NCBI RefSeq assembly: GCF_001619985.1
Contig: NW_017264194.1
Span: forward strand, 434,001-498,000
Source of the DNA: Xylona heveae TC161
Taxonomy: Eukaryota > Ascomycota > Xylonomycetes > Xylonales > Xylonaceae
Direction: 5' to 3'
DNA length: 64,000 nt
Within the stretch, counting starts at the first letter, position 1. Every line of letters begins with the position of its first letter. Position numbers and translations under genes: made by a program. Shown here in pieces: positions 28,502 to 64,000 of this stretch. The notes below the pieces were generated by a model, which did not search any database, was not told where the DNA came from, and saw nothing but the letters and a program-made list of their open reading frames with translations.

Positions 28502-29844
28502 GGTGACGAAGGTTCACACCAAAACCCCGTCAGCCGGGAGCGCGTGAGGAGTATCTGTCAACGCTTGTGCGTTAGCCAAGAGATATCTGCGACGTTGCTT
28601 CAACCCAGGTGCACAGAGAAATGTTAGAAGATATGATGAGCGGATTCAGCTTCTTCGTGCCGTTCCTGATTGTTCAAAAGCTAGGAGCTGCTGTGCAGAC
28701 AAAACTGCCGGCGGTAATCATAGCTTCTTGTGTAACCCAGTGAGAAAGCACCCACCTCGCTTTTACACGCTCTATCCTTCAAAGGACGTTGACTAGGAGA
28801 GCGCGATAGAATCGATCCAAGTCATATGAAAGAAGCTCCTAGCTTCTCAAGAAACGAATCTGGAAGGGAAATTTTCAGTGTGCATAAAGCTTGCAATTAT
28901 GACGGAGATCAGTCTTGTGCGCGGAGGTTCCTCGTTGCTTTGTCGGCTTAACCAGGCTGCAAGCGACCTCGCGTTCACCCCATGCGACTGGGTTGGAGCT
29001 TGGGCCTTCCCCCGCTGAACCTCATGCATCATAGGGTCTTTGATTACGTGACCCGGTCGAGTACCGATCGCTGTCTCACCCCAGGAATTAGATCAATAAT
29101 TGGTCTCAATTCAACTGATCAGCGAAGCCTACCTAGCTACAATAGATTGTAGCAAAGTAAAGATTTTATTTGAGATATGGTTTGACTTCTGCATTCTTTT
29201 GCGCTTTTTCGGTCAGCTCTCTTTCAGGAAGCTGCCTATCTTATCCGAATTTAAGATTATATCAAGTTGTAAAATAAAAAAGTCCTGGTAAAAGATAACG
29301 TTGAAAAGGATATTGAAAAAATAAAATTAAATAAACAATTTTTAAAAAAAAAAAATAAACCGCTATAGTGGGAAACCGCCTTTGCCTGAAAGCTGAAGAA
29401 TAACCACTAATATTTGAAAAGGTCATTGCGATTCATAACACTCTACTTTGAATTTCCTAAGAATTGCTATTACACTCCTCCAGCTATTTGTATTAAGTGC
29501 TTCAAGCGCTATGACTGCGTGTTTAATTTGCATTCGATATCTCTCAACGCCTTCGTGAGCTATTTGCGAGCACCAAATGTTGTATAAAATAGAGCGAAAC
29601 AAAAAATGTGAACAATTGCGCCGAATATGCAAAAAGTCCGTCTATGTCGATAATCCAACAAGCATCGACGGCTGCTAGAAATTACCAAAGCCAACGCGTC
29701 CTGGCGGACTCCTGCAGAAGATGTACCTTATGTCTACTAGCAATTTTGAGGTGTAGAAAAATCAAATAAAATAAATAAAAGGCCTGACATTGCAAAAATT
29801 TGTCGACGTAGAACAGCCAGTTCATCCTTGTGTCATTGACACGT
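28502..29844. other. Intergenic region, blm10 promoter / gpi18 3' side
   Basis: About 1.3 kb. The half next to blm10 has ordinary base composition; 29090-29420 is strongly AT-rich with long A runs (29340-29360). No gene, terminal repeats or target duplications are visible. Confidence 0.5.
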
Positions 29845-45500: not shown

Positions 45501-46037
45501 GCTTTACGGGCACATGCTCTTGGTCGGAACCAGCTACTCAACTTCCCTAAGTAAGCCTGGACTTTCATAATGTGGATTTCGTTCTGATGCTAATGTAATA
45601 AAACAGATTATTTCTATCGGGCCTATGCTCTGGACCCGAAAAATCCGCTCATCAATCTATCCATGGCGTTAGGCTACATACATTATGGCCTTAAACGACA
45701 GTCGGAAAATCGTCAATATCTCATTATGCAAGGCCTTTCATTTCTCTTCGCGTATCATGACATCCGCATGGCTTCGTCACATCCCTCCGAGCGCCAAGAG
45801 GCAGAGTTCAACGTTGGCAATGCTTTTCATCTCCTCGGTCTTAACCATATTGCCATTCCTTACTATGAGCGCTGTTTAACCATAGGAGAGGAAATGGTAG
45901 CTGCTGGCGTGCAAATTGATGAGCATCATCAGGAAAACTTCTCTCGTGAGGCTGCCTTTTCGTTGCAAGGCATCTATGCCTCGGCCGGTGAATTGAGAAT
46001 GGCTGCAGCGGTAACAGAAAAATATCTCATTCTGTAA
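42560..46037 (+). CDS. tfc4: TFIIIC subunit tau131 / Tfc4 (TPR protein)
   Basis: Six exons, 42560-42897, 42954-43974, 44034-44829, 44891-45112, 45191-45550 and 45607-46037, give 1,055 residues. The N-terminal ~110 residues are acidic and end DDLGDEDL; a basic patch (ARRQRQRGRGKQAARGRKGK) follows. TPR helices then begin (QSKATSAFIDNDFERAKEYA, YDYERILKISP-type units, LAEVYIDMGHPDRALTHYRE), with a second TPR array from EHFSWLEPEG across intron 2 and a third in the C-terminal exons (NYFYRAYALDPKNPLINLSM). Length and order match Tfc4/Sfc4. In TFIIIC it bridges tau-A to TFIIIB at tRNA and 5S genes in the nucleus. It runs convergent with the F-box gene; the stop codons are only 100 bases apart. Confidence 0.94.
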
Positions 46038-46136
46038 TTGCTCAAGTTCGGCGACATTTCAAACGTTCAAGCTGAAGCAATCGGATCATCCCGACAAGGT
46101 TATTTTACCCATGTCATTTTCGGGGTTTTCGTCGGC

Positions 46137-47121
46137 TTATGCATATTCCGGATCTACCTCGATAAACCGTGCATTCGGAATGTACGAGCGGCAAGGCGCA
46201 ATGAGGTCTGGAATATGCCAGATTGTATCATTCATACTTCTCAAGTCGTCACAATCTATATTTGGGCAGTCGTACAGGGAAAGGGTCTGCCCCACAGAAA
46301 ATTAGGCCCCTTTTCGGTTCATCAAGTGAGCTGGGTTCTAGAGCACATACCTTTAGGCTCGCCAACCTTGTTATATACGGATAAATTCTCTCATCAATCT
46401 CTTCCTTCCAACTTCTCGTGAACATGAGGGTTTCCAACTTTTTGCCAATTTCTAGGGCAGCCAGATACTCGAAAAACTCCTCACCAAGTCCCAGGCACTT
46501 TTGTACCTGAAGATGGCGGAAACGTCGGGACGGCTCAATCATTCGCATCAGCTGATAATCGGTGATTCCGCAACGCTCTAGATTGAGGCTCTCCAGGACA
46601 GCGAATTTCCCAGCCAAATGATTCCACATTCTTGACGGTGGGGCAACGTCCCAGAAACCTTTTTCGAGATCTGCGTGCCGCACGTGAGAGTGATCAAGTT
46701 TCAGGCTCAGCCGTCGCAGATACGTCATCTGCGACAAAATTTTGACCGTGGCCGAGCTCAGGTCCCAGAGCGTCAGTTCCAGATCCCGCAGAGTCTGCGT
46801 ATACGGCGATATGGCCTGGCACGCGATCTTATTTTGAGCTAAAATGGTCGAGCTTGCTGTGCGCGTTTTGGATGGTCGCAGAATCACGGACAACTTGTGT
46901 CTGTCAGTAGCTGAAGTCTGCTGGGGTAGTTGGTCCAAAATATAGGCTATCCGGCTGTTTATTTTACTATGGAAGACGCCTAGGTGGAGTGTGGTGAAAA
47001 AGGTCCGGTGGATTGCCCGATTCTGTTTCGATGTCTCTCCGAAGCAAAGCAGCGATGGGATCTCCAGGTAAGATAAGATCTCGTAGGTAATTTCCAACGG
47101 CAGATTGTCTAGTCGAGCCAT
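46137..47121 (-). CDS. F-box protein with leucine-rich-like repeats
   Basis: Exons 47121-46351 and 46286-46137 give 306 residues. The start MARLDNLPLEITYEILSYLE is an F-box (LPxEI...I.SYL, then FGETSKQNRAIHR). Leucine-rich-repeat-like segments follow (LRDLELTLWDLSSATVKILS, LESLNLERCGITDYQLMRMI, RHLQVQKCLGLGEEFFEYLA). The second exon, joined through a GTATGT donor and GGGGCAG acceptor, adds LASLKTLSLYDCPNIDCDDL and ends EVDPEYA; without splicing the frame runs into unrelated sequence. F-box proteins join SCF ubiquitin ligases as substrate receptors; the target is unknown. An ATG at 47151 would add ten residues ahead of the F-box and is less likely. Confidence 0.82.
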
Positions 47122-50100
47122 CCTGAACAGCTTTGAGACAAGTTTTCGCAACTGCTTTGCAGTTCCGAGAAACGGTCGAGTCTCAGAGGGAGGCGTCGAT
47201 ATCTCTAACCCAAACTCGGAATCTCTATGGGTCCTTTTGATGTTTAGGAGTCGCTAGGCAAGTTTAACTCTTTTTGTGTAATTTATAATAGCAAACAAAG
47301 GAATTGTACAAAAGTAAATATGCCCGTGGCTGGCTACCATGACGGCGGCGGCGGCGCCCCAGGGTTTTATAAAACAAAAGCTTCTATCCCGTGTCATCTG
47401 AAACTGGAAGCCTAGTAGGTAGTCAAAACCAAGGAAAATAAAAAATGACCATTCAAAGACACATTAGGTAGAACACCCCTCTCAAACGCCCTCCCCCAGC
47501 CCTTTCCGCGGCCGGGCGCCAACCAGAACCCCCCAACCCATCATCGTCATCATTGTGATCATCAGCTGCTGTTTCTGTCGCCTCTCTTTCTACTCTCTTT
47601 CTCTCTCTCTCACTCTCCCTTTCTCTTTGGTCCACCCCCCCCGGCCGCTCTGCGCCATGTTTGTGTGCCGTTGTGTTGCTTTGGGTTTTGGGTTTTGGCT
47701 CTGACTTCCAACGTCCCGAGTGTTTGGGTCCTGGTCCTATGGTCTGTGGTCCGCGGTATGGGTTCCGCTTTCTCCCCACACATTTTTCGTGACCCACGCG
47801 TGGTTTTGTCACCCCTCTCGCTTTCCAGCCCACCCATGTCTATTTTCCCTTGTCCTTTCGGGTCAATAGTTTCATTTGTGTCTTTCGCCTCAATTATTGA
47901 ATCACGAATCATGATGATCTACGATATACAGGGGCGGGTGGCTGCCTTGTAGGCGGCTATGTATTGTGATCAACGACCTTGACCTTGGCCCTGATCCTGA
48001 CCTTGATTCTGACTCGACCGTGGCTGTGGACTATTGACTGTGATCCATGACTTATGATTCATGCCCATGTCCATGCCCATGACCATGAGTAAGGTAAGTG
48101 ACGGTGACTACTCTATACATCTGCTTCTGACGGAGTATTTGACCCCTCAGTTGTAGGAACCATATGTACCCCTGCATTGCTGCGGTGCTGCGGTGCTGTA
48201 CAGATGAAGTCGCTGTGCCGCCAACCCGCCTGCTTCCAGCTTCCAGCTTCCAGTAACTTGCCCTCCCTGCCAGTCGATGAGAAAGAGAATAAAAACGCGC
48301 AATTAAAGGTTATTTACCAGACCTTACTGTGGATACTACTTCCTTGCCCTGTCGAATTGCCGCCTCGTCGGGTCGTCGCGCTTTCGCATTGTCGCGCTTC
48401 TCGCCAAATCTGTCATTTCCTTTTTAACTTTTTGTGAATTTGTGAAAGGAACTTCATCGTGCATTGCATTGCATTACAACTTGCATTTGCGTCGCATTGT
48501 CACATTGTCACGTTATGTGCGTATGCGGCGCGGTGCCAGGGGGTAGGTAATAAATGAGCAAAGGAAGCATAGGAGACGCGGAGATTTTGACAAGTATACC
48601 GAGTAGCCACAATGCGACCTGAGCGTTCTGTGCATTAGTTCTTTTTACTTTGCTACGATCGGCAGAGTACGTAGAGTATGTACAGAGTAGAACGCGATTA
48701 AATAACGCGTGGTTGGACGACAGGGATCTAGGGAGTATGGAAGAGGGATATACAAGGGGAGTATGCGATGAGGAGAACAGAAGAGATTACGGATCTCACG
48801 GGGTCGCGGGATCATGGAATTTCAGGATTATATTGATTGAACGTTGGTTGTTTTTTTGGCGGTTGTTGGTTGGTTGGTTAGTTGGTTGGTTTGTTGTCTT
48901 TGGTAGGACAGTTGGTTGTTTGTTACAGATGTGGTCATGAGAAGGAGACACAAGGACTGACTGACGATGCAGATGAGTAAGATGAGAAACACACTGCCGA
49001 GAACATGTGCGAGACAAACAGGCAGGGCAGCCAGCGAGCTGCTACCTACGGAGTAGATGGCTCGACAAGGAACAAGGAAACAGAATAATCACAATTGTCG
49101 CGTGGTATGCGCTCCCATTTGTCCGTGGATGCGATATACACATCGTGGTACCTTCGTGCTCTGTAACGAGATAACGGAGTACGTACAGTACGTCAGCCCA
49201 TGCCGGGATAAACCCTCGACCGATCAAAAGTCTAAAGTTTACCGTTTGGTATCCTCAGCTGGTCGTAGCCAACGCAGCCTAAGAAGAGTTTCTCTCGATA
49301 GGCTTTTTTTTTTTTTACGCAGTTTCATGTCTACCTACCAAGTTGCTGTGCCTTCATATTGCATGGGTAAGGTAATACGCTTCTCGTATTTGATTTCCTT
49401 CAAGGATAACATGCCTCGGCTTGTTCTCAACTCTTTGCATTCCGGCATTTCCATCTCGCTACGCGTGACAAGTACCATCTGAACACCGATGAGTTCATGA
49501 TCATCAACCCATCGTGTTGTCTTGGAGCAAGTGCTAAGCGAAATAGGCAGGCGGCCTGTGGCCTGCAACAGGTACCTAGTTAACTTTACTCGCAGTTCTT
49601 GACCCCATGTTGCCATGTATTGTAATATCCTGATAGACCAACACGCCAGCGTTACCAACGTGCAAATATGTTTTTTATCGTCATACGAGATGGATTTTCA
49701 TCTGGTTCCGTGGGGGGCCAAGAAAGAAAGTTGGAAAGAACAAAAAAAGGCGGCAGCAGGGGAAAACGATCGTCACCGTCGTCATCATTATCATCGTCAT
49801 CTGCAGTCTTCATCCCGCGTCCTACATTCCCCAAAGGTCATTTAAGACAAAAGTCTATAGATTAGTTCTGCCCGAATGGACGGAGAGAGTAGGCGCCAAA
49901 TAAGACCGTGTGGGTGTCCGCTGGACCCATGACCACTGTGTTGGGTTTGAGATCAACCTTGGCGGGCGCTCGTGCTCTCTGGTGGGTGTGGGATGCTACC
50001 ACATGGCGCGCATCCAAGATGCCGAACAGTGTCAGTGCTTGATATTAGATGAAGAACTAAATCAGCGCTGGAAGGGAATATCGCTAACGATTAGTGGAGT

Positions 50101-50299
50101 TTAGGTGGCTTTTTCGCTACAAAGTAGTGTCTGTCAAAGGAAAATCTCACTGGAATATGGAAAAAGGTACTGTTCTTCATGTCACATTGGTGGGAAAGAT
50201 ATCGCTAAGGTACATATTATAGTATAATGAGGAAAAGAAGATGCGTACTATTTTAGCGACATGTCTATACTAGACTTGCTCTGAAGTTTCTGCGGTTTA
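47122..50299. other. Long gene-poor region
   Basis: About 3.2 kb without a supportable gene. Features seen: a GGC triplet run near 47343-47356, a C/T-rich block with CTCTTT units (47575-47630), GGTTTTGGGTTTTGG near 47681-47698, CCATG repeats near 48063-48087, TACGGAGTA at 49047 with ACGGAGTA at 48130 and 49174, and a TTGG run near 48861-48893. It probably contains the F-box gene promoter and the 3' side of the dioxygenase gene. Confidence 0.5.
48861..48893. repeat. Degenerate (TTGG)n repeat
   Basis: Repeated GTTGGTTGG units on the plus strand over about 33 bases, in noncoding sequence. Confidence 0.7.
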
Positions 50300-51328
50300 T
50301 TACTGCATTACCTTTGCCCAAATACCCTCCAAATCCTCATGAGGACTGATGTTCTCAACAATACCCAGCGCCGACGTGGGCTTGGTATAGCCCAGCAGCT
50401 CCAACATCTTTGGACTCATCTTCATCACCTTGCTGCGCGGGATGGCAAGGAACTGGTTTTCCTCCGTCCGGAGTGTTCCTCGTACGAAAAACAGACTGTG
50501 CATGGTCCGGACAGAGTTTGGCACGGAATTATGACCTCCCCCATGGAAGGCAGATGCCAGAAAGATCAGGGCTGAGCCGGCAGACATTTCTAGCACACGA
50601 TTAACACTCATAGCTTGCACAGCAACAAATGCAGATGATTAATTACCTGCAAAGCAGACATCGTCTTCCTGTGGGGTCGCCCATCGCTGATCGTCCCATT
50701 TATGACTTCCAGGCACGAACATGGTCGCTCCATTTTCTCGAGTCACATCACAGCCGGCAATTAAGCAACCAAATTGACTTGCGTGTTTGAAGCTCCAGTC
50801 CTCGGGCTTGGGGTGCCGAATGCCGTGAACATTGTCATCTCGATGCAGCCGTTGCCGGGGAGCGCCATATCCAATGTTCATTGACACACTTAGACTGAGC
50901 AGTGGGTTGATTGTGTTGGGGTCTGCCCAGTCCTCACGATATACATTAAATTTGTCCTGCAGAATGTGCTGTCGCAGCTGCTCCAGAACGGGATGCTCGC
51001 AGATTGACGCAATAGTATCGGATTTACCAACCAAGCCCGGGACGAGGACCGTCTGTCGAGGAATGGTGTAAAATGCGTCCCCATTCAATTTTGCCGTTTC
51101 GTCTGCGTGGCGACGCTGCCTGTCACTCCACGGTCGGAGTTCCTGGTCGATGGAAGCCAGCTCTTCTGCTGAGACGAGGTCTTTGAGAATAACACCTCCA
51201 TCGCGTGCAATAATGGATAAAATGTATTCTACCGGAGCTGTTGCTGGGGCAGTGATGATAGACTTCTTAGGCCGGTATGAAGGGTCGATGGGGGCGGGTG
51301 CAGCCGGGGCTAAGAAAGTTTCAGGCAT
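50300..51328 (-). CDS. Phytanoyl-CoA dioxygenase-like (FtmOx1-type) Fe(II)/2OG enzyme
   Basis: Exons 51328-50647 and 50589-50300 give 323 residues. Family blocks are VILKDLVSAEELASIDQELR, ETAKLNGDAFYTIPRQTVLV and MNIGYGAPRQRLHRDDNVHG. The last holds the iron-binding His-x-Asp (HRD); the distal His lies in FHGGGHNSVPNSVRTMHSLF, which also supplies a 2-oxoglutarate-binding Arg. This subfamily includes verruculogen synthase and other fungal hydroxylases, so it most likely hydroxylates or otherwise oxidises a small molecule with O2 and 2-oxoglutarate in the cytosol. It shares a 623-base divergent promoter with the permease; that promoter holds a GATCGG-N7-CCG site. I place it in a five-gene cluster. 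Confidence 0.9.
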
Positions 51329-51571
51329 AATGGCTAAATCAAATAGAACCTCCTAATGTCGATGTTCACAAACTCTGAATATTCTTGTCGTAAGACTTTC
51401 TCTAATTATTATTTATTTTTTTTTTCAATCGCAATACACCTAACAGGTATACACAAAATCCTGTAGACGATGAGTGTGATAAGATCGGAAGAGCAAAGTG
51501 ATGTCTCATCCAGACACAATACACCGTTGATAGAGCGATCCGAAGCGATGATCAGCACCCGTTCTTATCTT

Positions 51572-51584
51572 CGGGTTCGATCCG
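51572..51584 (-). promoter_or_regulatory. Candidate Zn2Cys6 site A, CGG-N7-CCG
   Basis: On the minus strand it reads GATCGGATCGAACCCG: CGG, seven bases, CCG, preceded by GAT. Sites B (54111) and C (57852) share GATCGG-N7-CCG. The nearby cluster gene at 58749 encodes a Zn2Cys6 regulator, a class that binds CGG triplets. Confidence 0.55.
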
Positions 51585-51874
51585 ATCACCACAGATAGGC
51601 AGTACGGTAACTGGCATGTTGTGCACAACTCAGACCTGGTTTTAAAAAGGGTATTCTAATGCTGATCTCGAGCTATCTTCCAAATTGGGAATATTTCTCC
51701 CCGGAAACTCTGTGACCCTTTGATTGGAGGGATATTTGGGCGAAGTCGTTGATATCTTGATTCTTGTGTATCATGGAAGGTTTAAACAATTCAAACCAAT
51801 GGGACCAATATTAGTTTTACAATTGCTAACCAGATACGATTATCCAATCATAGTCTGTTATGAAAGAGCATTTG

Positions 51875-51880
51875 TATATA
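51875..51880 (+). promoter_or_regulatory. TATA box of the permease gene
   Basis: TGTATATAGG about 72 bases before the permease ATG, a normal position for a fungal TATA element. Confidence 0.55.
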
Positions 51881-51951
51881 GGCTCTAGATCAGCCCTGTA
51901 AACCAATCCAGAAAGTAAAGTAAAAAGGTTTTTTTTTGCTCCAAATTCAAC

Positions 51952-53860
51952 ATGGCGACTCCATTGAAAAAGTCAGATCCGACAAAAAAAGACGAAACGG
52001 TAACTGAAGAGAACAATGCTGATTCGATTGATTTTGCAAACGGCGAGATTATTCAGAGCTCAGATGCCCTGCAACGCCATCTCAGCAGTCGCCAGATCCA
52101 ACTCATTGCTATAGGAGGTTCCATAGGAGCGGCCTTGTTTGTTAGCATTGGCTATGGCCTGATGCAAGGAGCCGGTAGTCTCCTTATAGCATTTTCCATC
52201 TACTCATGTATTCTGGCCCTTGTGAACAACTCAATGGCTGAAATGTGTATCTTTATGCCTGTGAGCGCTTCCTTTGTGCAGCATGGCAGTGTCTGGGTTG
52301 ACAGTGCATGGGGTTTTATGGCCGGATGGAATTTCTTCCTCTTTGAAGCATTGCTCGTGCCATTTGAAATCACGGCTTTGGATTTGATCTTGACTTTCTG
52401 GCGAGATGATATCCCGGCCGCCGCTGTCATCTCTGCATGCATCTTCTTTTATGCGTTAGTTCTTCGACCCCTGAAAAGAATTGGATCGTGGCTATACTAA
52501 ACTAGGACTGTTCAGAATCACCAATGTGCTCGCAATCAATTATTTTGGCGAAGCCGAATTCTGGCTGGCGGGAGGAAAGCTTTTGCTCATCATCATTTTG
52601 TTTCTCTTCACTTTTATCACCATGGTTGGAGGGAATCCACAGCGTCATGCATATGGATTTCGAAATTGGTCGAAACCAGTATAGTCTCATATTTTCGTTT
52701 TTTTTTTCCTTTTCATATGGCACAGGCTAACATTGTCCCCTTTCCAGAGTCCATTTGTCGAGTACTTGGCTACAGGAGACCTCGGTCGCTTTGAAGGATT
52801 TCTGGCTGCGTTGTGGCAGGCCTGTTTCACCATTGTGGGGCCCGAGTATCTGGCCACTGTTGCAGGTGAAGCACAACAGCCGCGAAAGACATTGAAAAAG
52901 GCATTCAAATCTGTCTACTGGCGGTTTGGTGTCTTCTTCATTGGAGTCGCGCTCTGCGTCGGCATTGTTCTCCCAGCGAATGACCCAACTCTGAGTTCAG
53001 TGTTGAGCGGCGGTAAGGGCAGTGGCACCGGCGGCGCATCACCATTTGTAATTGCCATGGTCAATATGAAGATTGAAGTTTTGCCGCATATCGTCAACGC
53101 TCTCCTGTGTACCAGCACCTACTCGGCGGGAAATGCCTATGTATACTGCGCGACGCGGAGTCTTTATAGCCTTGCTCAAACCGGACAAGCTCCCAAATTT
53201 CTTCGAAAAACGTCCAAGAACGGCATCCCGATATACTGCTTGGCTATTGTGTTGGGATTTGCCTGTCTGGCTTATTTGAAACTCAGCAGTGGCTCTGTAA
53301 AGGTTCTGACAATGTAAGAATGCCTCTTTCAATCATTTTCTATATTTGCGATTTTTTTCCCCCGCCGCACGGGTTGCTGATTCCATACAAACAGGCTCAC
53401 CGATCTGGTAACTGGCGGCGAGCTGGTGACTTATATTGTCATGTGTGTCAACTACCTCTTCTTCTATCGGGCACTGAAAGCACAAGGTTTCGACCGCCGT
53501 GAATTGCCGTACCGGGGATATTTCCAACCTTACGGGACCTGGATAGCTGTGATTTTCCTTGCTCTTGTAGAAATTTTCTACGGATACTCGGTCTTTTTCA
53601 AAGGACACTGGGATATTGGCACCTTTTTCAGCTACTATACGATGGTTTTCCTTGCAATCTGCACTTTCAGCTGTTGGAAGATTATCAAACGGACTCGATT
53701 TGTCAGTCCAGATAAGGCAGATCTGGTTTGGGAACGCCCGGTCATTGACAGATACGAGGCCATGATGCTGCACGATGACGTGGGAATGCGGAGAAAGTTT
53801 ATGCAGAAGTTGGGGTTGTATTCACAACGTATTCGTTGGTCACGGAGCTCGCAGGCGTAA
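51952..53860 (+). CDS. Amino-acid permease (YAT/APC family)
   Basis: Four exons, 51952-52454, 52516-52678, 52748-53313 and 53395-53860, give 565 residues. The N-terminal polar tail ends at LQRHLSSRQIQLIAIGGSIG, the family start of TM1 with the GGSIG substrate-backbone loop. Then come GFMAGWNFFLFEALLVPFEI, the spliced INYFGEAEFWLAGGK and ITMVGGNPQRHAYGFRNW, GPEYLATVAGEAQQPRKTLK and NALLCTSTYSAGNAYVYCAT. About twelve membrane helices are present, and the C-terminal tail is polar. The family imports amino acids with protons at the plasma membrane; the exact substrate cannot be read. It is divergent from the dioxygenase and is probably the uptake step of the cluster. Confidence 0.93.
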
Positions 53861-54382
53861 TGTGTAGCATTTCGACGTCATGTATCAAGATTAGACTTAT
53901 ATCTAGAATGAATGGTTATAGAGCAACGCAATATAAAGTGCAATTTATTTTCGAATCTCTAGGTTTTATTGCACCTTTCTTGGTAGAGTCGAAGAAATTT
54001 TTCAATGCAGCAAGCAGACGAAAACGAGTAAAGACAGACAATGGAGAGAATACGATTTGGAAACAAAGCTCCCCATAGACAAATAATCAATTTCATGACG
54101 CACCTAAGATCGGATAGCTTCCGGTCCTGATAAGAGGAAGCCCGGAGGCTGGAGGCTGGATGCTGGAGCTATTTCTCAGCTTTTAATGCAACACTGCAGC
54201 AGTTTACCAGCCGTGGGCCCGTCGCCCATGAATTCATGATGCCTAGTACTACCAGTAGTCCAGCCCAGCTATAAATCATCAATTTTCTTTTTCTCTATTT
54301 CAACCTCAGCTACCAAGACACGAACGGCATATTGAAGCAAGTTGCAACCAACCACACCCCCCTTGTCATACAATCCTACGTC
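53861..54382. promoter_or_regulatory. Dehydrogenase promoter region
   Basis: About 520 bases between the permease stop and the dehydrogenase ATG. It holds the site-B inverted repeat about 260 bases upstream of the ATG and a GGAGGCTGGAGGCTGGATGCTGGAG repeat near 54142-54166. Confidence 0.5.
54111..54123 (+). promoter_or_regulatory. Candidate Zn2Cys6 site B, CGG-N7-CCG
   Basis: GATCGGATAGCTTCCGGTC: CGG, seven bases, CCG. The symmetry extends further (GATCGGA... and ...TCCGGTC), making it the most palindromic of the three cluster sites. Confidence 0.6.
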
Positions 54383-55710
54383 ATGGAGGAAGAACACATC
54401 ATCGCCCCAGATGTGTGCTATCACGAAATGCCTGCATTCGCCATCCCGCACCGTCTGACGACCTACTCCAATCTCGCGGACGAGTGTAAGGACGCCCACG
54501 AAATCAGCAACCGTCTCAAAGACGCCACCATCATCGTAACGTCCTCCGTGCCCATCTCCGCATCGACGATTGCCCGCTGTCCGCATCTCAAGCTCATTGT
54601 GCTCTCGTCCGTCGGCTACGACCATGTCGACATCGAGGCCTGCCGCAGCCGAGGAATCCGCGTATGCAACACGCCGTCCGCATACACAGATGCCGTGGCC
54701 GAGCACTGCATCGCGCTGTATTTTAGCGTCAAGAGACGCATTCCGCTGATGCATCAGTGGACGCTCGATGGCAATTGGGTCAAGGATCCGACGGGCTGCG
54801 GGCCGTTTGAGGGGTACGTGCCCCGGGCGTGTAGACAGGAGGTTTTGGGGGTTGTGGGATATGGCGGGATAGGTACTCTGATTTTCCCTTCTATTTCTTT
54901 ATTTCTTTTTTTTTTGTTTTGTTTTTAGTCCTGACACTTTTACTTTTTGTATTTTTTCTTTTGATACAAACCCTGGCGAGTCACGAGTCACGAGTCACGA
55001 CTGGGCATGTAGCATGTTACATGTTTCCTCTACATTGGTAACCTGTCAGGCTGTCACCTGTGGATTCCACACATGAAGACGGTAATTCTTTGCCAAATTG
55101 AAGTCTACTGTCTGGCTAATTCAGATTGCGAATTGCGGAGTATATAGGTAAAGCCATTGCCAGAATAGCCACTTCGCTGGGCATGACCACTCTCATTGCA
55201 GAAAGACGCGAACCCCCTCATAATCATTCTTCGCATTCGCAATCACAACAAACGCCATCCTCCGGCAATTCAAAACAACCCCGCGCAGGACGTGTTGCAT
55301 TTGAAGAAGTCCTGAAAACATGTACCGTGCTTGCATTGGCATGTCCGTTGGACGACTCCACGCGGAACACGCTGACCGAACGGGAACTATCAATGATGCA
55401 GCCTCATGCAATCATCATCAACGTTGCGCGCGGCGGGGTCGTTAATGAGGCCGATATTGCAAAGGCGTTGCAGATGAGGAGAATTGCGGGGTATGCAACG
55501 GATGTGTTTTCCAAGGAGCCGGCGTCGTCGTCGTCAGAGGATCCCAATCCGCTCTTGGCGGGGACAGCAGGGACAGCAGGGACGGTGCCCAATATAGTCC
55601 TCTCGCCGCATGTGGCGTGGTATAGTCAGAGTAGCGTCAAGAATATGCGCGCCACGATAAAAGCGAATGTGGAGGCGTTTGTAGCGGGGAGTCCGATTAA
55701 TGTTGTGTAA
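54383..55710 (+). CDS. D-isomer-specific 2-hydroxyacid dehydrogenase
   Basis: Exons 54383-54872 and 55148-55710 give 350 residues. The first exon carries the substrate-domain block (LKLIVLSSVGYDHVDIEACR, NTPSAYTDAVAEHCIALYFS) and the start of the nucleotide site; splicing completes GVVGYGGIGKAIARIATSLG (GxGxxG). The second exon has TVLALACPLDDSTRNTLTER, then INVARGGVVNEADIAKAL (catalytic Arg), a catalytic Glu in the SKEPA segment, and LSPHVAWYS (catalytic His). The triad is complete. Relatives interconvert 2-oxo and D-2-hydroxy acids, such as glyoxylate/hydroxypyruvate, with NAD(P)H. The 275-base intron is unusually long for this genome and contains three tandem CGAGTCA units. A non-ATG upstream frame from 54332 is leader. 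The site-B motif lies in its promoter. Confidence 0.92.
54977..54997 (+). repeat. Triplicated CGAGTCA in the dehydrogenase intron
   Basis: Three perfect tandem 7-base units followed by CGA, inside the intron at 54873-55147. Confidence 0.85.
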
Positions 55711-56270
55711 TTATAAGTACGTGAAGTTTAGGTAGCCGTGGATGTGTGATTTGTATAGTCTTGGGCCTTTGGCTATGTCATACATACCTTATATACATAC
55801 ATATAAATGTATATAAACAAAATCAATAGATAACGATCATAAATACAGGAGAGGCATCTGTGGAGACTGGCCTATAGAAGAACTGGAATTTATGTAACAG
55901 GTGTAGTTAGATCCGTATGACATCTTGAAAAGCAGTGACTAGTACTGAGTAGAGATTGTCTCAATAATTATTATGTCTGCTTGTCATGGTATGGTGAATC
56001 AATGTTGAATTGTAATTTTATGGACTATGTAGTTTATGGACAGCTTTTCCGACATTTGCAGTGTTCAGGCACTGATGTGGATTATCTCCTTACTTTACCA
56101 AACCATATAAAGATATTTTCGCTATCTCACTAGAGGAATGAAGACTTCATATTTGGCAAAACACGCTACATTCAATGTTTTTGCACAGATCATAACTTGA
56201 ATTCAATAGAAAGGCTGAACGCAAAGACTACTTAGAAAGATAGTATAGGTGAAAATGAACCCAGATACCC
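55711..56270. other. Convergent 3' region, dehydrogenase / oxygenase 2
   Basis: About 560 AT-rich bases between convergent stop codons, with TATATACATACATATAAATG near 55790-55815. I see no gene. Confidence 0.55.
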
Positions 56271-57490
56271 TCAATTCAGTTCGCCACGGATCTCAAGCCC
56301 GTTGTGAACCTTGCCCGAAAGGACTTGTTCGATAGGAACGATCTGATCTTTGGTCACGCCCAAATGCTTGATCTGTTGGTCGATAAAAGAATTGCACAGC
56401 GCCACGTCGAACTCCTTCCCTGCCTCCTGGCCTGAAGACAACTCCTGCCGTGCTCTTCGAATTCGCTCCTCGAGGATTTCCAAGCGATAATCCGCCCATT
56501 GATAATACAACTCGGACGGCTGGGCAATACGTGTGATATATTTGAGGTGAGAATCGTCGACAATCATGGGATTCTTGGGCCTGAACGCCGTCACCATCGA
56601 AATGCGTTCTCTGCCACCCTGTGCAGCAAGTGCTTGGTGGTTAATGTATCTTCCTTGCATCACGGCAGCACATCCCTATTTGATTTTAGTATATGTTGTT
56701 AGCCTTTTATATCATTTTTTTTTTTTTGAAAAGCACATCGCAAGTGGGTGAATTACCATCTGTGGGCCTCGAATTTTGTGAACTTCTCCCTCAGCAGTCT
56801 TGATCGCAGTCTCGCCACCAGCCATATTGGACACATCACTCAGCATGACCACGCAGACAAATGGGTAATGGTCAAAATGCCAGTTTGTCACCTTGCCAGC
56901 GGCTCCATCGGCTTTTCCATGCGCTCGACGCCCCGCAAGAGCTGATTCTTCTGTTGAAGCAATTAGAATATTACCAAGTTCAAAGTCCATGACTGGAACA
57001 AGCTCGATGCCTGCAATGTCCGAGATGATTTTGAGGGTCTCGGGACTAGTCAGCGCAGCATTCATGAATGGCGTATATCTACAAGCAAGAAGGTGTTAGT
57101 TCTGATGGCGCGGGTGAGCCAAGTTTCTGAAAGCGGTCAAACTTACTTGGGACAGTGTCCTCTGATGCTGAGGGCAGTAGAGTTTCCAGCAATATAGCAA
57201 CAGTTCTTCCAGACCTCATCGGAGAAAATCTCCTCTCTCATGATGCCAATTGCTTCCTTGCTGAACAATGAGAAGCCCTCAGATACAGCCACTGGAGAGA
57301 TTCCTGTGTCTTCTGGATAACCAACATCTTTCATTTGGTAGATATGCTCGGGTGCTGCATAGTTGAGATGCTTCTTGGGGTCGAAGGTGACCTGAGCTTT
57401 GGTTTCATTCTGTTTATGGTTGATGATTGGCCGATAGTGAACAGGTCCTCCATAAAGAGGGCGCTGCGGTGTAAAAACTTGGGCTGCCAT
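56271..57490 (-). CDS. Second Fe(II)/2-oxoglutarate oxygenase (PhyH-like)
   Basis: Exons 57490-57147, 57078-56757 and 56675-56271 give 356 residues. The middle exon has the iron site NWHFDHYPFVCVVMLSDV (His-x-Asp) and MAGGETAIKTAEGE. The last exon, joined after RGPQM, gives GCAAVMQGRYINHQALAA with the distal His and a partner Arg. A C-terminal helical part (YYQWADYRLEILEERIRRAR) follows. It is clearly different in sequence from the dioxygenase at 50300, so the two enzymes are not a recent duplicate. The chemistry should be O2- and 2-oxoglutarate-dependent oxidation of a small molecule; substrate unknown. It is divergent from the Zn2Cys6 gene, and a site-C motif lies in the shared promoter about 360 bases upstream. 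Confidence 0.85.
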
Positions 57491-58748
57491 GATGACGGAT
57501 TTGTTGAATTATTCCGAATGCGAATTGAATGAATGTTGCTCTCAGTAAATAAATACTGTTTTATATGCAGACCTTACCATGTGAGAGACTCGGGCGGATA
57601 ACAAGTATATTCGCTGAGATGAATCCTTATCTCCATGTTGGGTGAGATAGTCCATGTACATGACAATCGCATAGCGACTCGAAAGTATCGTCACGGATCA
57701 TCTGCATAGGAATTGTCACGTTGCATCTGCGGCTATATGGTCGATAAGATATGAGATAGGGAGGAAACTCTCCGAGAGGTTCTGAACCAATGATATACCA
57801 CTAGGGCTTCCGATCTTCTACCGCACCTGTCGCTGATTCAACCATTTTGATCGGAAGCCATCCGTATTGCCGCATATCTATTTGTTTGATTGATCGGATA
57901 CAAAATTCCCCTGTACCCCTCCTTTTGATGTGATATTAAACGAGGTATATTTCCAGAATTTTTCTTCATTGTCTATGAAGCAACATTAGAAATTAGAATC
58001 TCCCAGCACTTGACGACATTGTTTATATGGAGGTGCAGAAACGAAACACTTATAAAATCTCCGACGACAGATAATGTCGGGCCAACTTCTCCTGGCTTTT
58101 AGGACATCTCATGAGAATACTCCGTAGAGGACGCCAGCGGTTGTTGTGAAGCGGAGACAAAGTACGGGGTTACAGGTTGTTCGACAGAGGAGAAGTTGGA
58201 TCCTGATACCCAACCCCTCAAACGGACCCCTAATTCGGTTATCTTTAGCGACAGCCAATAAGCCCAAGCTCGCGGCGGGAGCTGCTTGCAGGTAGGATTT
58301 GACGGAACTGAATCCCCGTTTGAGCAGTAGATCTCCTGTGAACGATTTCCAACTTCTCTCTCGAACAGGTATAGTCAATAAATATGATAATTTGGGGTGT
58401 AATTGCCCGTTGCGTCTTCAAGAAGTGTGGATGGTTGAAGAGTCGTTCAGGTGTTATGCTGCTTAGACGGAAATTTATGCCACTTGTGCATAATATATAT
58501 GCACGGACAAGTCTCCACCAACCCGCCCGCCCTTATCGTGAACTTATCTACTACGTAAGGTTAAGGTATATACACTGCCCACAATAGAGTAAAGACGTTC
58601 CATATGGCTTGAAAGAATCGCTTCTCTGAGAGCAATTGCATGATTTCTTCTACTATTCAAATTGCACACGGCAGAGAGGATACGGGGACTTGTCCCCTGA
58701 CTGCCGTCTCCTTATCATCTATCCTATCCCTATCACCAGGCGGCAGAT
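57491..58748. promoter_or_regulatory. Divergent promoter, oxygenase 2 / Zn2Cys6 regulator
   Basis: About 1.26 kb. A minus-strand TATAAA lies at 57559-57567, about 70 bases before the oxygenase ATG. The site-C inverted repeat, a matching half-site at 57805-57815 and TACTCCGTA at 58118 also fall here. The presence of a site in front of the regulator gene would allow self-control. Confidence 0.55.
57852..57864 (+). promoter_or_regulatory. Candidate Zn2Cys6 site C, CGG-N7-CCG
   Basis: GATCGGAAGCCATCCG: CGG, seven bases, CCG, preceded by GAT as in sites A and B. A reverse-strand half-site GATCGGAAGCC at 57815-57805 makes an 11-base inverted repeat with it across 33 bases. Confidence 0.55.
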
Positions 58749-61501
58749 ATGCAAGCCGAAGCCCGCAAATTAAGAAGAACTCCTAACGCGTAAGGAAACC
58801 CTCCTAATATTTCTTCCTGGAGCATTGAACAATGCATTTGACATATGTTGCTTGGATCTTTTTAGATGTATTCCATGCCGTCAGAGCAAAGTGAAATGCT
58901 CTGGCAATGAACCATGTACCAGCTGCCAACGGCGGCTTGTGAAGTGCCGGTTTGCAGAGGAAGGCAACAAATTGTTGGTATCGGAGAGGTTTGTGACTTG
59001 AATATCCTATGAGATTCATGGATGAGAACGGGACTTATAGAGGTCTCAGGTATATCCAAGAGCTACAGAACCAGGCGAAAAATCAGCATTGCGGAACTGG
59101 AACGAAACGCTCCCATGACACAGCTATGGGATCCGGCGATGAAATTGATAGTGAGCAACACTTTGATCAGATCTTTATTTAGCTGTATTGTTCTCAAGAC
59201 TAAGCCCTTGTCAGAGGTAACAGACGGCCAATCTAGAGAACTGCAACCTTCCAGCTGGAGCAACAATGAGCACAGCATATGGAGAAACCCATTTACATTC
59301 CCCTCTATGACTATAAAAAATCCCTATAAAGACAACCGTACCTGGAGTAAGTCTCTAAGCTAGACTCAGTCTAATATTCTAATTACTGACATCTTGGAAT
59401 TAGTTTGGCTAGCTCCTTCATCAGTATGGTCGTTCACTAGGCGGCTCACAACCATGATAACCGAGAAGCTTGACCTTGAAGATTCTTACAGTAGCCCTTT
59501 ATTCAAAGATGGAGATATTTACCAATTAAGTTGGAAACTATCCTCTGATGATAGCCTTCCTGATATCAGTGGTATCCCACCGATTGATTATGCGCTGTAT
59601 CTCTTCAATACCGTCAAATTCCATCTCGGCCAGAACTATCGATTCTTCGATGAAGAGGCGTTCATTACCCATATGCAGGAATTCTACTACGGGTCGGCTA
59701 TTAAAAAAGCTACAGAATCTCGGCTTTGGTTTGTCCAGTTCCTCTTGGTCCTTTCATTTGGAAAAGCTTTTCTGTCGCGATCAAGGAACCCTAGGGATCC
59801 ACCCGGCTCAAAGTTCTTTGTTCGTGCCATGTCCCTCATGCCTGCGCATAGTTCTCTGTTTAAGGATAGTCTGCTGGCAATTGAGGTTCTGGCTCTTGCT
59901 GGATTATATTTCTATTCAATTGATCAAAGAGAGTCGGCGCATTTATACGTAAGCGAACCTTTCATCATTACACTAGGGACTTTTGCTAATATATCTACCT
60001 TTTTTGGAATTGAATTTAGGTAGGTCAAGCAATACGCATAGCGCAGTTGGAAGGAATGCACACCGAGCTGCCTGAAGAGGAACTTGGCGCGGCAACCCTG
60101 ACCCGGTGTCGCAACCTCTGGTGGACTTTATACATCATGGATCGACATTTTTCGTCATCGGTAGGGCTTCCAATGAGCACACAAGATAGCGATATTGCTA
60201 CTTTAATCAATCCGCCGGGTATATCTTCACAACGAGATACGACTCTCAGTCTACAAGTGAAGTTGTCACGCTTACTGGCCTTTATCCTGACTAGTATGTT
60301 CTACAAACCTGTCACCCTCCACACCTTTCCCCTTTTTGTCGTTTGCAGAGTTTTATGTCTCATTTATCTTTCAATATAGCTGTATACAAATCAGTGAAAA
60401 GTCCAATGAAGACGTTTCTCGAGACCACGCAATCTATAGTGAATACTATTGCTGGACATGCGGAAGAAATCGAGAAGATAATCCACGTCAAATTCCAGAG
60501 CTCGGTAGATTCAATGCCCAAGGGGACGCGCCATATAACTCTATTATATCACCAGGTTCGTTGAAATAAAAATCCTCTTTTTTTGCATACCTTTAATTCC
60601 CTAAACTATTTTATTTACTGCAGTGTGTCATTGTGGCAACGCGGCCTCTTCTTCTTTCAGTGCTCAATGAAAGACTAGAAAAGTTAGATGACGGCGGAGC
60701 GGACTGGCAAAATTTCTTGCCCCGTACGAAGTCGTTAATCTCCACCGGTATCAACTCAGCTATAAAGACACTTGAGATATTGTCTGCATTAGTCGAGGAC
60801 AGTCTTCTTGGTAAGTCCGAGTTCTCCATATCTATTATGATACGAGACATTGTTATCATCTGAGAAGGAACTACGAGCTAAATTTGATCTCTTTAGAGGG
60901 TTTCCTGCCATTTGACCTTGAATTTACATACGGATCTGCCGTGCATCTGATAATGGCAAACACACTCTTCCCCAACATGATCGACGGACAGAATACCTAT
61001 AGCCAAGACGCACATTCGATTCTGGACGAAATCATCTGCAAGGGAAACAGAGTTGCCGAAGTGCGGAAACAAGAATTAATTTATCTCGAGGGCTTGTTTC
61101 AGCAGCTTGCCACGCGTGTAGACCGGCGGGGAGATTTCCAAAGCTCTTTTACGCCATCTGTCCTTGACAATAATGTGCAGATAATCGAGCCAAAAGATAA
61201 AAGTTCTTGTGAAAAGGAGGACGAGCAGCAGCAGCAGCAGCAACAACAAGAACTCCCACAACAACCACAACCACAGCAGAAAGCATCTAGGACATCTCCT
61301 GAAACACCAACAACTGCCACTCCTCAATCAGTCACAGCCGCCTCCGGAGACCCTCATCAATTATCTCCCGCTTCGCTAAACCTACAAATGTCGTCAACTA
61401 ATATCGAATATCTCAACAATATTCGAATCTCTTCGTGTGAGATTCTCTCGATCATGGACCAGATTGGCAATCATGAACAAGACTGGGAGGCAGGCGTTTA
61501 A
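58749..61501 (+). CDS. Zn2Cys6 transcription factor with fungal_trans domain
   Basis: Nine exons (58749-58789, 58866-58988, 59050-59150, 59215-59346, 59404-59948, 60020-60293, 60380-60555, 60624-60810, 60897-61501) give 727 residues. The zinc cluster is formed by exons 1 and 2: ACIPCRQSKVKCSGNEPCTS then CQRRLVKC, i.e. CX2CX6CX5CX2CX6C with all six Cys. A linker and coiled-coil start (SERYIQELQNQ) follow. The middle-homology region includes IWLAPSSVWSFTRRLT, YVGQAIRIAQLEGMHTELPE and RCRNLWWTLYIMDRHFSSSV. The last exon ends with an acidic, Gln-rich run and a Ser/Thr-rich tail that could activate transcription. It is probably the regulator of the neighbouring oxygenases, permease and dehydrogenase. 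The many short introns make single junctions less certain, though every join keeps frame. Confidence 0.87.
61225..61248 (+). repeat. CAG/CAA run coding for polyglutamine
   Basis: About eight consecutive Gln codons, mostly CAG then CAA, within the C-terminal exon of the Zn2Cys6 gene; a length-variable site in many fungal regulators. Confidence 0.85.
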
Positions 61502-61724
61502 CAGATACTTGTTTCATTCATTAACATTACATGAACATGGCATTGCTTAGCTCAGTAGCCAAACGAAAGACATGAGTAGTGCAGTCACACAAGTAAGAAG
61601 TGAATATTTCCAGTGTTGCAGTTGCTAGTAAAAGTTTGCCAGATTCGTGGCTCACTATTAGTGTGCAAGACATTGGATAGATCCTTTGGTACATGTAATA
61701 CAATAGTGCATTGCTTCACAACAA

Positions 61725-61834
61725 TCCGTGATGGTGTAGCGGTAACATCGGTCGCTCTCAAGCGATAACCTCAGGCTTAGCCTGAAGTCCATCTCGTGTC
61801 CCGACCAGCCCGGGGTTCGACTCCCCGTCACGGA
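61725..61834 (+). tRNA. tE(CUC): tRNA-Glu (CTC) with a 40-base intron
   Basis: The acceptor stem pairs TCCGTGA with TCACGGA. The D arm is GTG-loop-CAT. The anticodon stem pairs GGTCG (61750-61754) with CGACC (61802-61806); the loop is CTCTCA plus C38, giving anticodon CTC at 61757-61759. The T arm is CGGGG TTCGACT CCCCG. The intron, 61761-61800, begins one base after the anticodon, the canonical place. It contains a perfect TCAGGC-TTA-GCCTGA hairpin. The mature length is 70 bases before CCA addition. Confidence 0.93.
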
Positions 61835-61835
61835 A

Positions 61836-61842
61836 TTTTTTT
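61836..61842 (+). terminator. RNA polymerase III terminator
   Basis: Seven consecutive T starting two bases after the tRNA-Glu acceptor stem. Confidence 0.85.
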
Positions 61843-62329
61843 GCCTTTTTATCTTGATCAGCCCCTGCTGTCAATTAGAAATTTTTTACTTTCCCACATG
61901 TATGGAAAAGATTTGAAATATTCTCAGTGTACACCAGTAAATCTTATTCCAGTGAACATACTCATAACTCGGTAATGATAATACTCATGTTTCGCATCAT
62001 TTAGAACTTCTCAGTCACTGAACATAGCACGACATATCAATGCTGGACGAAGAATGGAAAAAAGGAAGGAAACAAAGCATTAAAAAAGTAATCGCCGGCC
62101 CAGCCCTCCAAAATACCCAGTTATGCCCCGTTCCCGTATTATCCAAGAAAGAGCCTGCTATCCTTCGCCTAAACGCACTGATCATATAAAAAAGGCAACA
62201 TCTCATGTCCAGGCAGCCGTAAAACGATCCGACCATAAAAGAAAGGGAAAAAAAAAAAAAGAACAGAAGGGAAAAGTTGAAGAAGAGATTGCAGTTCCCC
62301 ACACGCAGTACCCCGGTGGCAGCTACACC
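61843..62329. other. Region between tRNA-Glu and the Sha1-like gene
   Basis: About 490 bases, the 3' side of the minus-strand Sha1-like gene; an A run lies at 62250-62261. I see no gene. Confidence 0.5.
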
Positions 62330-64000
62330 TCAAAAAGCCCTCCTCTGCCTTCGGGCTTGTTGCTTCTCCGCCTTTTTCCTCGCAATCCACCCACGCGCAA
62401 GGGCCTGGGTGAGGGTTACCGACTTGACAAGCTGGTCAATTTTCTTTGCGAGGCAGGCTCGCCAGGCGCGCTGCAGGACGGTTGCAGCATTAATGACGCG
62501 ATCTCTGGTCAGCACGACGGATTGGCAATCATGCGCGAGCTTCATGAGCGTGACTCGCTGATGAATGGTTCGGCGGACAAGCATGTGCCGGTATGCGCGC
62601 TGGATTGTAGACGTGGCGCGGACTTTAACAGCGGCTGGAACGAGCCGGGAGCAGAGGAAGGCAAGACTGGCGAGGACAAAGTCCCGATCGAAGACGCGGC
62701 CGGTGTGGATTGAGCTGCCGAAGAGAGATGCTGGGTGATGTTAGCAATTTAATTGAACATGTGAACATTATTGGAGAGAGATGGTGAATGAAATGGAGTT
62801 GGGATATAGTGGGGAATAAAAAGACAGGGGAAGGAAAAAAACTCAAAACTTACCAAAGTGATGGCTGCAGCCCAAGTTTCGGAGCTTGGAATCCAAGCCC
62901 TGGCTCTGAGTTGGGTTTGTGGGATCGTCTTCTGGAGAATGTTCGGAGTTGGAGATGATGTGTGGAAAGTAGACTTCGTATTCCTGGACAATCTTGGCAA
63001 AGACTTGGCCATTTGCAAATGACGTGGTAAGATTGGAGACTTTGAGGCCGTGAAGCCGGCCAATGCTGCGCGCCCATAATTTCAGCAAATAGGTATAGCG
63101 CTCTAGTCCGTCGAGGAACTCCAGCTCTTCGTAATCTTCGTCGATGCAGTCCTCGTCAGCCTGATCGGGGTGCATTTCCGCGAATTTGCGTTTGAAAGTT
63201 CGGATTTCTGGCAAAAGCATCTTTTCTTCGACGAGTGCGCTCAGGCCCCATTTGCCTACTAGAGCCCATAATAGGCCAAGGGTCTTTTCTCTGTATCCGT
63301 CCACAACATCTTCCGGCTTGATTGTCTTGAGTACGCCGTCCATGCCCTTGACTCCATGAAGAGCGGCCAGGGCAATCTGCACGTTGTACATTCTTTGTGC
63401 CTTTGCTTGGCAAGGCAGTTTGAGGAATTGCGACAGAACCCAAGGATTTCCGTCTCTCTCTTGCTGCATAAGATCCAGAATTTCACCGGTTGGCATCGTA
63501 ATAGTCGTATTCGTCGCATTCTCCTGATGAAGATTCAATGAAGGTGGCGGGAAAAGTAGCAGCTCCACGAGATGAGTAAGGTAGACTCCGTCGCGTAGGT
63601 CAGTCGCTAGGTTGTTGATCTTGTATGTGCGTTCTTCGAGCGGATATTGGATATGATGGATGTGGTAGTTGAGATGACCCAGTGCTTTGGGCAAGTCTCC
63701 CAGCGACGGGAGTAGTATTTGGCTCAATGCAGTCAAAACTTCTTTTGTCGATTTGTATAGCGAATTGGGCAAGAATAGACAATCTGTGATATTTTCGGAG
63801 ACCCTGGCCTTGTCGAGAAGCAAAATTAGCATCAGGCTTCGTAGAGTAGTTCGTCTGATACACCACTCTGGTGATCCGCTCAAGGAGTCTCGGTCATCGT
63901 TGGATCCATGAGTAGCGTCAGAATTGCGAACAAGGAAGATGTTGAGATATTCCTCCAAGATTCGTCTTTCAGGCTTTGAAATTTCTTTCCTTTCGCCGGT
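62330..64000 (-). CDS. ASPM/Sha1-type calmodulin-binding protein, partial (runs off the right edge)
   Basis: Exon 64000-62854 is open to the window edge, so the N-terminal part lies outside; exon 62730-62330 ends the protein, for about 515 visible residues. The visible part has a calponin-homology-like region (INNLATDLRDGVYLTHLVEL, MYNVQIALAALHGVKGMDGV, DGYREKTLGLLWALVGKWGL), then WARSIGRLHGLKVSNLTTSF. Across the intron comes CSHHFGASLFGSSIHTGRVF. The C-terminus has IQ-type helices (TIQRAYRHMLVRRTIHQR, NAATVLQRAWRACLAKKI, ALARGWIARKKAEKQQAR). That order, CH domain then IQ motifs, is that of ASPM/Asp, annotated as Sha1 in moulds, which binds calmodulin and works at spindle poles or in septation. 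The Met at 63958 is internal, since the same frame continues upstream. Confidence 0.85.

What the first reader, a model, noticed from the sequence alone, without database searches (positions are those of the whole stretch)
51572..57864. Shared GATCGG-N7-CCG site in three promoters of the cluster
CGG-N7-CCG occurs at 51572-51584, 54111-54123 and 57852-57864, once in each of the three upstream regions that serve the five cluster genes, and each copy has GAT directly before the CGG. CGG-N7-CCG alone is expected roughly once per 4 kb, but with GAT on either side only about once per 130 kb. Zn2Cys6 proteins bind inverted CGG triplets with a fixed spacing, and the cluster encodes one.
Basis: partly seen in the sequence, partly recalled or inferred. 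Interest (0 to 1): 0.75.

Follow-up and report, generated by a model that had tools for sequence, protein, structure and literature searches.

The report
Shared regulator-binding site in fungal cluster
Three neighbouring control regions in a fungal gene cluster share a short DNA word far more often than chance, which looks like the docking site of the cluster's own regulator: real, but an ordinary kind of gene switch with a slightly unusual layout.

Summary
GATCGG-N7-CCG lies at all three stated places (the first on the minus strand) and is above chance, but a fourth copy at 29054-29069 was missed, and the genome (24.28 Mb) has 107. The organism is Xylona heveae TC161. The sharper signal is a longer half-site, WGATCGGAW: six copies in the three promoters against 0.069 expected. 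GATCGGA ranks first of all 7-mers there (E about 5e-4 to 0.002 on whole-sequence backgrounds). Three of the six carry CCG at N7 (Monte Carlo P = 0.0015); CGG-N7-CCG alone is weak. Best reading: sites for the cluster's Zn2Cys6 regulator, co-ordinating an amino-acid permease, two Fe/2OG oxygenases and a D-2-hydroxyacid dehydrogenase, as in the prn cluster. Against certainty: the regulator's DNA-binding domain and linker align without gaps to PUT3, whose spacing is N10 (recalled), so N7 may not be the true dimer site. No relatives' DNA was available, so promoter conservation is untested; binding is unshown. New member of a known kind.

The parts
51329..51951 (.). P1: divergent promoter between the PhyH-type dioxygenase gene and the amino-acid permease gene
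   Evidence: gene models; two WGATCGGAW
51482..51490 (+). half-site WGATCGGAW, no CCG at N7
51572..51588 (-). TGATCGGATCGAACCCG: half-site plus CCG at N7; 244-259 bp upstream of the PhyH start codon, 365-380 bp upstream of the permease start codon
53861..54382 (+). P2: promoter of the D-2-hydroxyacid dehydrogenase gene
   Evidence: gene models
54107..54123 (+). AGATCGGATAGCTTCCG: half-site plus CCG at N7; 260-275 bp upstream of the start codon
57491..58748 (.). P3: divergent promoter between the second oxygenase gene and the regulator gene
   Evidence: gene models; three WGATCGGAW
57808..57816 (-). half-site; with 57849 it forms a perfect 11-bp inverted repeat GGCTTCCGATC / GATCGGAAGCC, 33 bp apart
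57848..57864 (+). TGATCGGAAGCCATCCG: half-site plus CCG at N7; about 360 bp upstream of the second oxygenase gene, about 890 bp upstream of the regulator gene
57891..57899 (+). half-site WGATCGGAW, no CCG at N7
50300..51328 (-). PhyH-type Fe(II)/2OG dioxygenase gene, 323 aa, two exons; closest solved relatives SwnH1 and SwnH2
51952..53860 (+). amino-acid permease gene (APC superfamily), 565 aa, four exons
   Evidence: TIGR00913 best, below its cut-off
54383..55710 (+). D-isomer 2-hydroxyacid dehydrogenase gene, 350 aa, two exons
56271..57490 (-). predicted Fe(II)/2OG oxygenase gene without a Pfam family, 356 aa, three exons; H182, D184, H235 and R246 invariant in 24 homologues
58749..61501 (+). 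Zn2Cys6 regulator gene, 727 aa, nine exons

Best explanation
WGATCGGAW is the core half-site of the cluster-specific Zn2Cys6 activator at 58749-61501. It is present two, one and three times in the three promoters and, in each promoter, once paired with an inverted CCG at N7. The activator would bind there when its inducer is present and switch on the permease, both oxygenases and the dehydrogenase together, with GATA-factor (nitrogen) input as in the proline cluster of Aspergillus. Shown: the sites, their enrichment, the genes and their families. Inferred: that this regulator binds them, activation, the inducer (an amino acid or imino acid), and nitrogen control.
For: GATCGGA is the top 7-mer of the three promoters: 6 against 0.19 expected, E = 5e-4, on a 249.5 kb background; 6 against 0.24 from the genome-wide rate, E = 0.0017 over 8192 7-mers; 6 against 0.07 on 73.4 kb of ORF-masked background, E = 8.5e-7, and 1 of 1000 random non-coding triples did as well. 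Of 7 WGATCGGAW in the window 6 are in the three promoters; the seventh (42944) overlaps a TPR-protein ORF. CCG at the same offset in 3 of 6 half-sites: P = 0.0015. Perfect 11-bp inverted repeat of the half-site in P3; GATCGGAAGCC occurs 8 times in the genome and two of these make that repeat. Regulator: Zn_clus and Fungal_trans domains; invariant basic arm R6, R10, T11, N13, A14 in 20 of 20 aligned homologues. Cluster genes stay linked elsewhere: by shared contig or neighbouring locus tags, regulator + PhyH in 5 other species, regulator + second oxygenase in 2, PhyH + second oxygenase in 14 (read by eye from the 120 listed rows each). HGATAR 17 against 7.7 expected, uncorrected P = 0.0025.
Against: No binding or expression data. 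No orthologous promoter could be read. 3 of 6 half-sites have no CCG at N7, and CGG-N7-CCG as a dyad ranks only 303 (p = 0.008). N7 is not favoured genome-wide: 12 copies against 11 for N8. The linker aligns without gap to PUT3, which uses N10 (recalled); one CGG-N10-CCG is in P3 (58303), none in P1 or P2. The W and AW extensions were chosen after seeing the sites. The GATA excess does not survive correction on non-coding background (GATAAG E = 0.23), and P2 is below background (1.9 against 3.2 per kb). The genome has a second related regulator gene on contig C8 (44% over residues 78-315) that could be the binder.
Confidence: 0.6

Rival explanations
1. The shared half-site is real but is read by another factor, for example the related Zn2Cys6 protein encoded on contig C8 or a wider-acting regulator, and the linked regulator uses a different site.
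For: The half-site lies close to the four enzyme and transporter genes rather than the regulator; a paralogue exists on C8; WGATCGGAW occurs 698 times genome-wide, about twice its reversed control of 332; the PUT3-like linker predicts N10, not N7 (and recall).
Against: Six sites confined to three promoters of one cluster that itself encodes a Zn2Cys6 protein is the pattern of pathway-specific control; no other place found by the pair searches has three half-sites within 100 bp (which cover two of the possible arrangements).
Confidence: 0.2
2. A chance cluster, singled out after the fact by a reader scanning 64 kb for patterns.
Against: The unbiased 7-mer count puts GATCGGA first with E of 0.002 or below; the N7 partner adds P = 0.0015; the 11-bp inverted repeat adds more.
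Confidence: 0.15
3. A sequence artefact: one half-site (51482-51494, AGATCGGAAGAGC) equals the start of the common Illumina adapter (recalled).
For: Exact 13-base identity at one of six sites.
Against: Only 2 copies in 24.28 Mb, about what chance gives; the flank does not look like an adapter remnant at a contig end; the other five half-sites do not match it in full.
Confidence: 0.01

Closest known systems
PrnA and the proline (prn) cluster of Aspergillus nidulans (PMC5983819, passages seen)
   Same: Zn2Cys6 activator encoded in a cluster with an amino-acid permease; several activator sites in intergenic regions; GATA sites beside them.
   Different: [quoted passage not shown] here WGATCGGAW, in three cases with inverted CCG at N7. 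The enzymes differ (two Fe/2OG oxygenases, a D-2-hydroxyacid dehydrogenase).
PUT3 of Saccharomyces cerevisiae (PDB 1ajy, 1zme)
   Same: Closest solved DNA-binding domain (E about 5e-9); Zn cluster, linker and start of the coiled coil align without gaps.
   Different: PUT3 sites are CGG-N10-CCG (recalled); the shared sites here are N7 or single half-sites.
AcuK/AcuM, CCGN7CCG (PMC12719309, one passage seen; PMC11373862, listing only)
   Same: CGG triplets of Zn2Cys6 proteins separated by seven bases.
   Different: Direct repeat for a gluconeogenic heterodimeric pair; here inverted, in an amino-acid-type cluster.
Swainsonine (SWN) cluster dioxygenases SwnH1 and SwnH2 (PDB 9osa, 9otb; PMC5473758, passages seen)
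   Same: The PhyH protein is their homologue (E 6e-95 and 3e-85).
   Different: No swnK-like NRPS-PKS, swnN or swnR was seen among the ORFs and families looked at in the window; permease and dehydrogenase families differ.

Membership tests
Zn2Cys6 (C6 zinc cluster) regulator | CX2CX6CX5CX2CX6C | tested here: met
   C15, C18, C25, C31, C34, C41 all invariant in 20 of 20 aligned homologues; Zn_clus E 1.3e-7
Zn2Cys6 (C6 zinc cluster) regulator | Fungal_trans middle homology region | tested here: met
   PF04082 E 3.6e-14
Inverted CGG-Nx-CCG site of a Zn2Cys6 dimer | two inverted CGG triplets at a fixed spacing in each target promoter | tested here: met
   one CGG-N7-CCG in each of 3 promoters; but 3 of 6 half-sites are unpaired at N7
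Inverted CGG-Nx-CCG site of a Zn2Cys6 dimer | bound by the regulator | not testable with these tools
   needs gel shift or DAP-seq
Inverted CGG-Nx-CCG site of a Zn2Cys6 dimer | conserved in orthologous promoters | not testable with these tools
   no fungal relatives in viral contigs or genome contigs; metagenome scans not available
PUT3-type site | CGG-N10-CCG in each promoter | tested here: not met
   one in P3 (58303), none in P1 or P2
[quoted passage not shown]
   the enumeration of CGG/CCG pairs shows none of these in the three promoters
AcuK/AcuM site | CCG-N7-CCG direct repeat | tested here: not met
   no direct repeat at N7 in the three promoters
SWN cluster | swnK NRPS-PKS linked to swnH1/H2, swnN, swnR | tested here: inconclusive
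   not seen among ORFs of 300 aa or more (1-46000), of 90 aa or more (46000-64000) or the Pfam-scanned ones; not searched beyond the window

The most novel reading that the evidence does not exclude
A widespread but uncharacterised family of PUT3-like regulators reads an extended half-site GATCGGA, its invariant basic N-terminal arm contacting the GAT, and tolerates single half-sites, divergent pairs and a CGG-N7-CCG dyad, so that linker length does not set the spacing as in PUT3; it controls an undescribed amino-acid oxidation cluster built on a SwnH-like dioxygenase and a BesD/HalB-fold-like oxygenase.
Probability: 0.2. Interest if true: 0.45.

Novelty: new member of a known kind. Interest (0 to 1): 0.3.

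Why it matters
If true it gives a testable binding site for a regulator family found across Aspergillus, Colletotrichum, Fusarium and others whose hits carry no characterised name in the listing (one carries an automatic thi1 label), and a way to list its targets. It would also test whether a PUT3-like linker can go with N7 spacing.

Tried and rejected
CGG-N7-CCG as the main signal: rejected, weak by itself. A genome-wide N7 regulon: of the 9 other WGATCGGAW-N5-CCG sites, 6 lie inside ORFs of 197 aa or more (L020, L024, L026, L028, L029, L030) and 3 (L025, L027, L031) do not lie in the five longest ORFs shown; no regulon claimed. The first version of that pattern had a spacing one too long (N8) and serves only as a control. 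Adapter artefact: rejected. PUT3-type N10 as the shared site: not shared. Strong GATA claim: dropped, since GATAAG has E = 0.017 on whole background but 0.23 on non-coding background. Orthologous promoters: none reachable. Literature: 0 papers for 'CGG-N7-CCG' and 'CGGN7CCG' (word-start), 'CGGNNNNNNNCCG' and 'N7-CCG' (anywhere), 'PUT3' with 'CGGN10CCG', and the cluster gene names together; this is one open-access library and the spellings tried, so it is no proof of absence. The Xylona heveae search was seen as a listing only. Cluster function from the second oxygenase's model is weak: mean pLDDT 75, best Foldseek TM 0.3-0.4.
Full report
What is there. The window lies at C2:434001-498000 of a 24.28 Mb, 17-contig genome. 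Three gene models are identical to database proteins of Xylona heveae TC161, an ascomycete of the class Xylonomycetes. The cluster has five genes: a PhyH-type dioxygenase (50300-51328, minus), an amino-acid permease (51952-53860, plus), a D-2-hydroxyacid dehydrogenase (54383-55710, plus), a predicted Fe/2OG oxygenase without a Pfam family (56271-57490, minus) and a Zn2Cys6 regulator (58749-61501, plus). It is flanked by ORFs with F-box and IQ motifs.

The motif as reported. All three coordinates are right. The pattern occurs four times in the window, the fourth at 29054-29069 outside the cluster, against a shuffle mean of 0.47, and 107 times in the genome against 77 for the reversed control.

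The motif as it really is. An unbiased count of all 7-mers in the three promoters (2400 bp) against 249.5 kb (20 stretches of 10 kb plus window 1-49500) puts GATCGGA first: 6 against 0.19, E = 5e-4. With the genome-wide count of 2397 the expectation is 0.24 and E = 0.0017. On 73.4 kb of ORF-masked background (117 segments) it is 6 against 0.07, E = 8.5e-7; in 1000 random non-coding triples 1 had a 7-mer as extreme. All six copies extend to WGATCGGAW; this form occurs 698 times in the genome (reversed control 332). The copies are two in P1, one in P2, three in P3. In P3 two of them form a perfect 11-bp inverted repeat, 33 bp apart; GATCGGAAGCC occurs 8 times in the genome. The P3 group is the only place where the divergent-pair hits (3 places) and tandem-pair hits (7 places) overlap.

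The N7 partner. Three of the six half-sites, one per promoter, have CCG at N7. Six random promoter flanks share a CCG or CGG at one offset in three or more cases with P = 0.0015. The dyad CGG-N7-CCG alone ranks 303 among dyads. WGATCGGAW-N5-CCG (N7) has 12 copies in the genome, 3 of them here, and the N8 form has 11, none here; hence N7 is not favoured outside the cluster. Of the 9 others, 6 are inside longer ORFs.

The regulator. It has homologues at 60% identity and below across Aspergillus, Purpureocillium, Colletotrichum, Fusarium and others (325 hits, 120 listed). In 20 aligned members the Zn cluster is invariant at all six cysteines, and a basic arm before it (R6, R10, T11, N13, A14) is invariant too; the linker is only 45% identical on average. 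That arm could contact the GAT 5' of CGG (inference; PrnA's amino-terminal tail is reported to matter for recognition, PMC5983819). The closest solved domain is PUT3 (E about 5e-9), aligned without gaps through the linker. PUT3 uses N10 (recalled), which speaks against a simple N7 dimer; but no N10 pair is shared by the promoters. A related regulator gene lies on C8.

The pathway. The PhyH protein is a homologue of SwnH1 and SwnH2, which are proposed to act on a pipecolate-derived indolizidine (PMC5473758, passages). The second oxygenase has invariant H182, D184, H235 and R246 in 24 homologues; its model (mean pLDDT 75) matches, weakly, free-amino-acid halogenases and hydroxylases of the HalD/HalB/BesD group and prolyl and lysyl hydroxylases (TM 0.2-0.4 on the query); D184 argues for a hydroxylase rather than a halogenase (recalled rule). 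With the permease and the dehydrogenase this suggests uptake and oxidation of an amino or imino acid (inference). By shared contig length or neighbouring locus tags in the 120 listed rows of each search, regulator and PhyH co-occur in 5 other species, regulator and second oxygenase in 2 Colletotrichum species, and PhyH and second oxygenase in 14 species, 9 of these with consecutive tags. No species in the listings showed all three apart from X. heveae, which may be due to the lists being capped.

Nitrogen control. HGATAR is at 8.0, 1.9 and 8.7 per kb in P1, P2 and P3 against 3.2 in non-coding background, overall P = 0.0025 uncorrected; P2 is below background and GATAAG does not survive correction (E = 0.23). 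It is suggestive only.

Verdict. A real, probably functional shared element, best described as a GATCGGA half-site, most likely read by the linked regulator. It is an instance of a known kind of control, with an open and testable question over the spacing.

Noticed in passing
window 29054-29069: Fourth GATCGG-N7-CCG of the window, outside the cluster, in no listed ORF of 100 aa or more; it lacks the A after CGG that all six cluster half-sites have.
   Followed up: partly
window 58082-58093, 58188-58199, 58348-58358: CCAACTTCTC(CT) occurs as inverted and direct copies in the regulator-proximal part of P3; unexplained.
   Followed up: no
window 51482-51494: AGATCGGAAGAGC equals the start of the common Illumina adapter (recalled); only 2 in the genome, so taken as chance.
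   Followed up: yes
window 56271-57490: The second oxygenase belongs to a widespread ascomycete family with no Pfam model and no solved relative by sequence; X. heveae has a longer paralogue (P0188, 46% identity).
   Followed up: partly
G000:C8:1041651-1043942: Second gene related to the regulator (44% over residues 78-315).
   Followed up: no
window 54960-55000: Short tandem GTCACGA repeats inside the 275-bp intron of the dehydrogenase gene.
   Followed up: no
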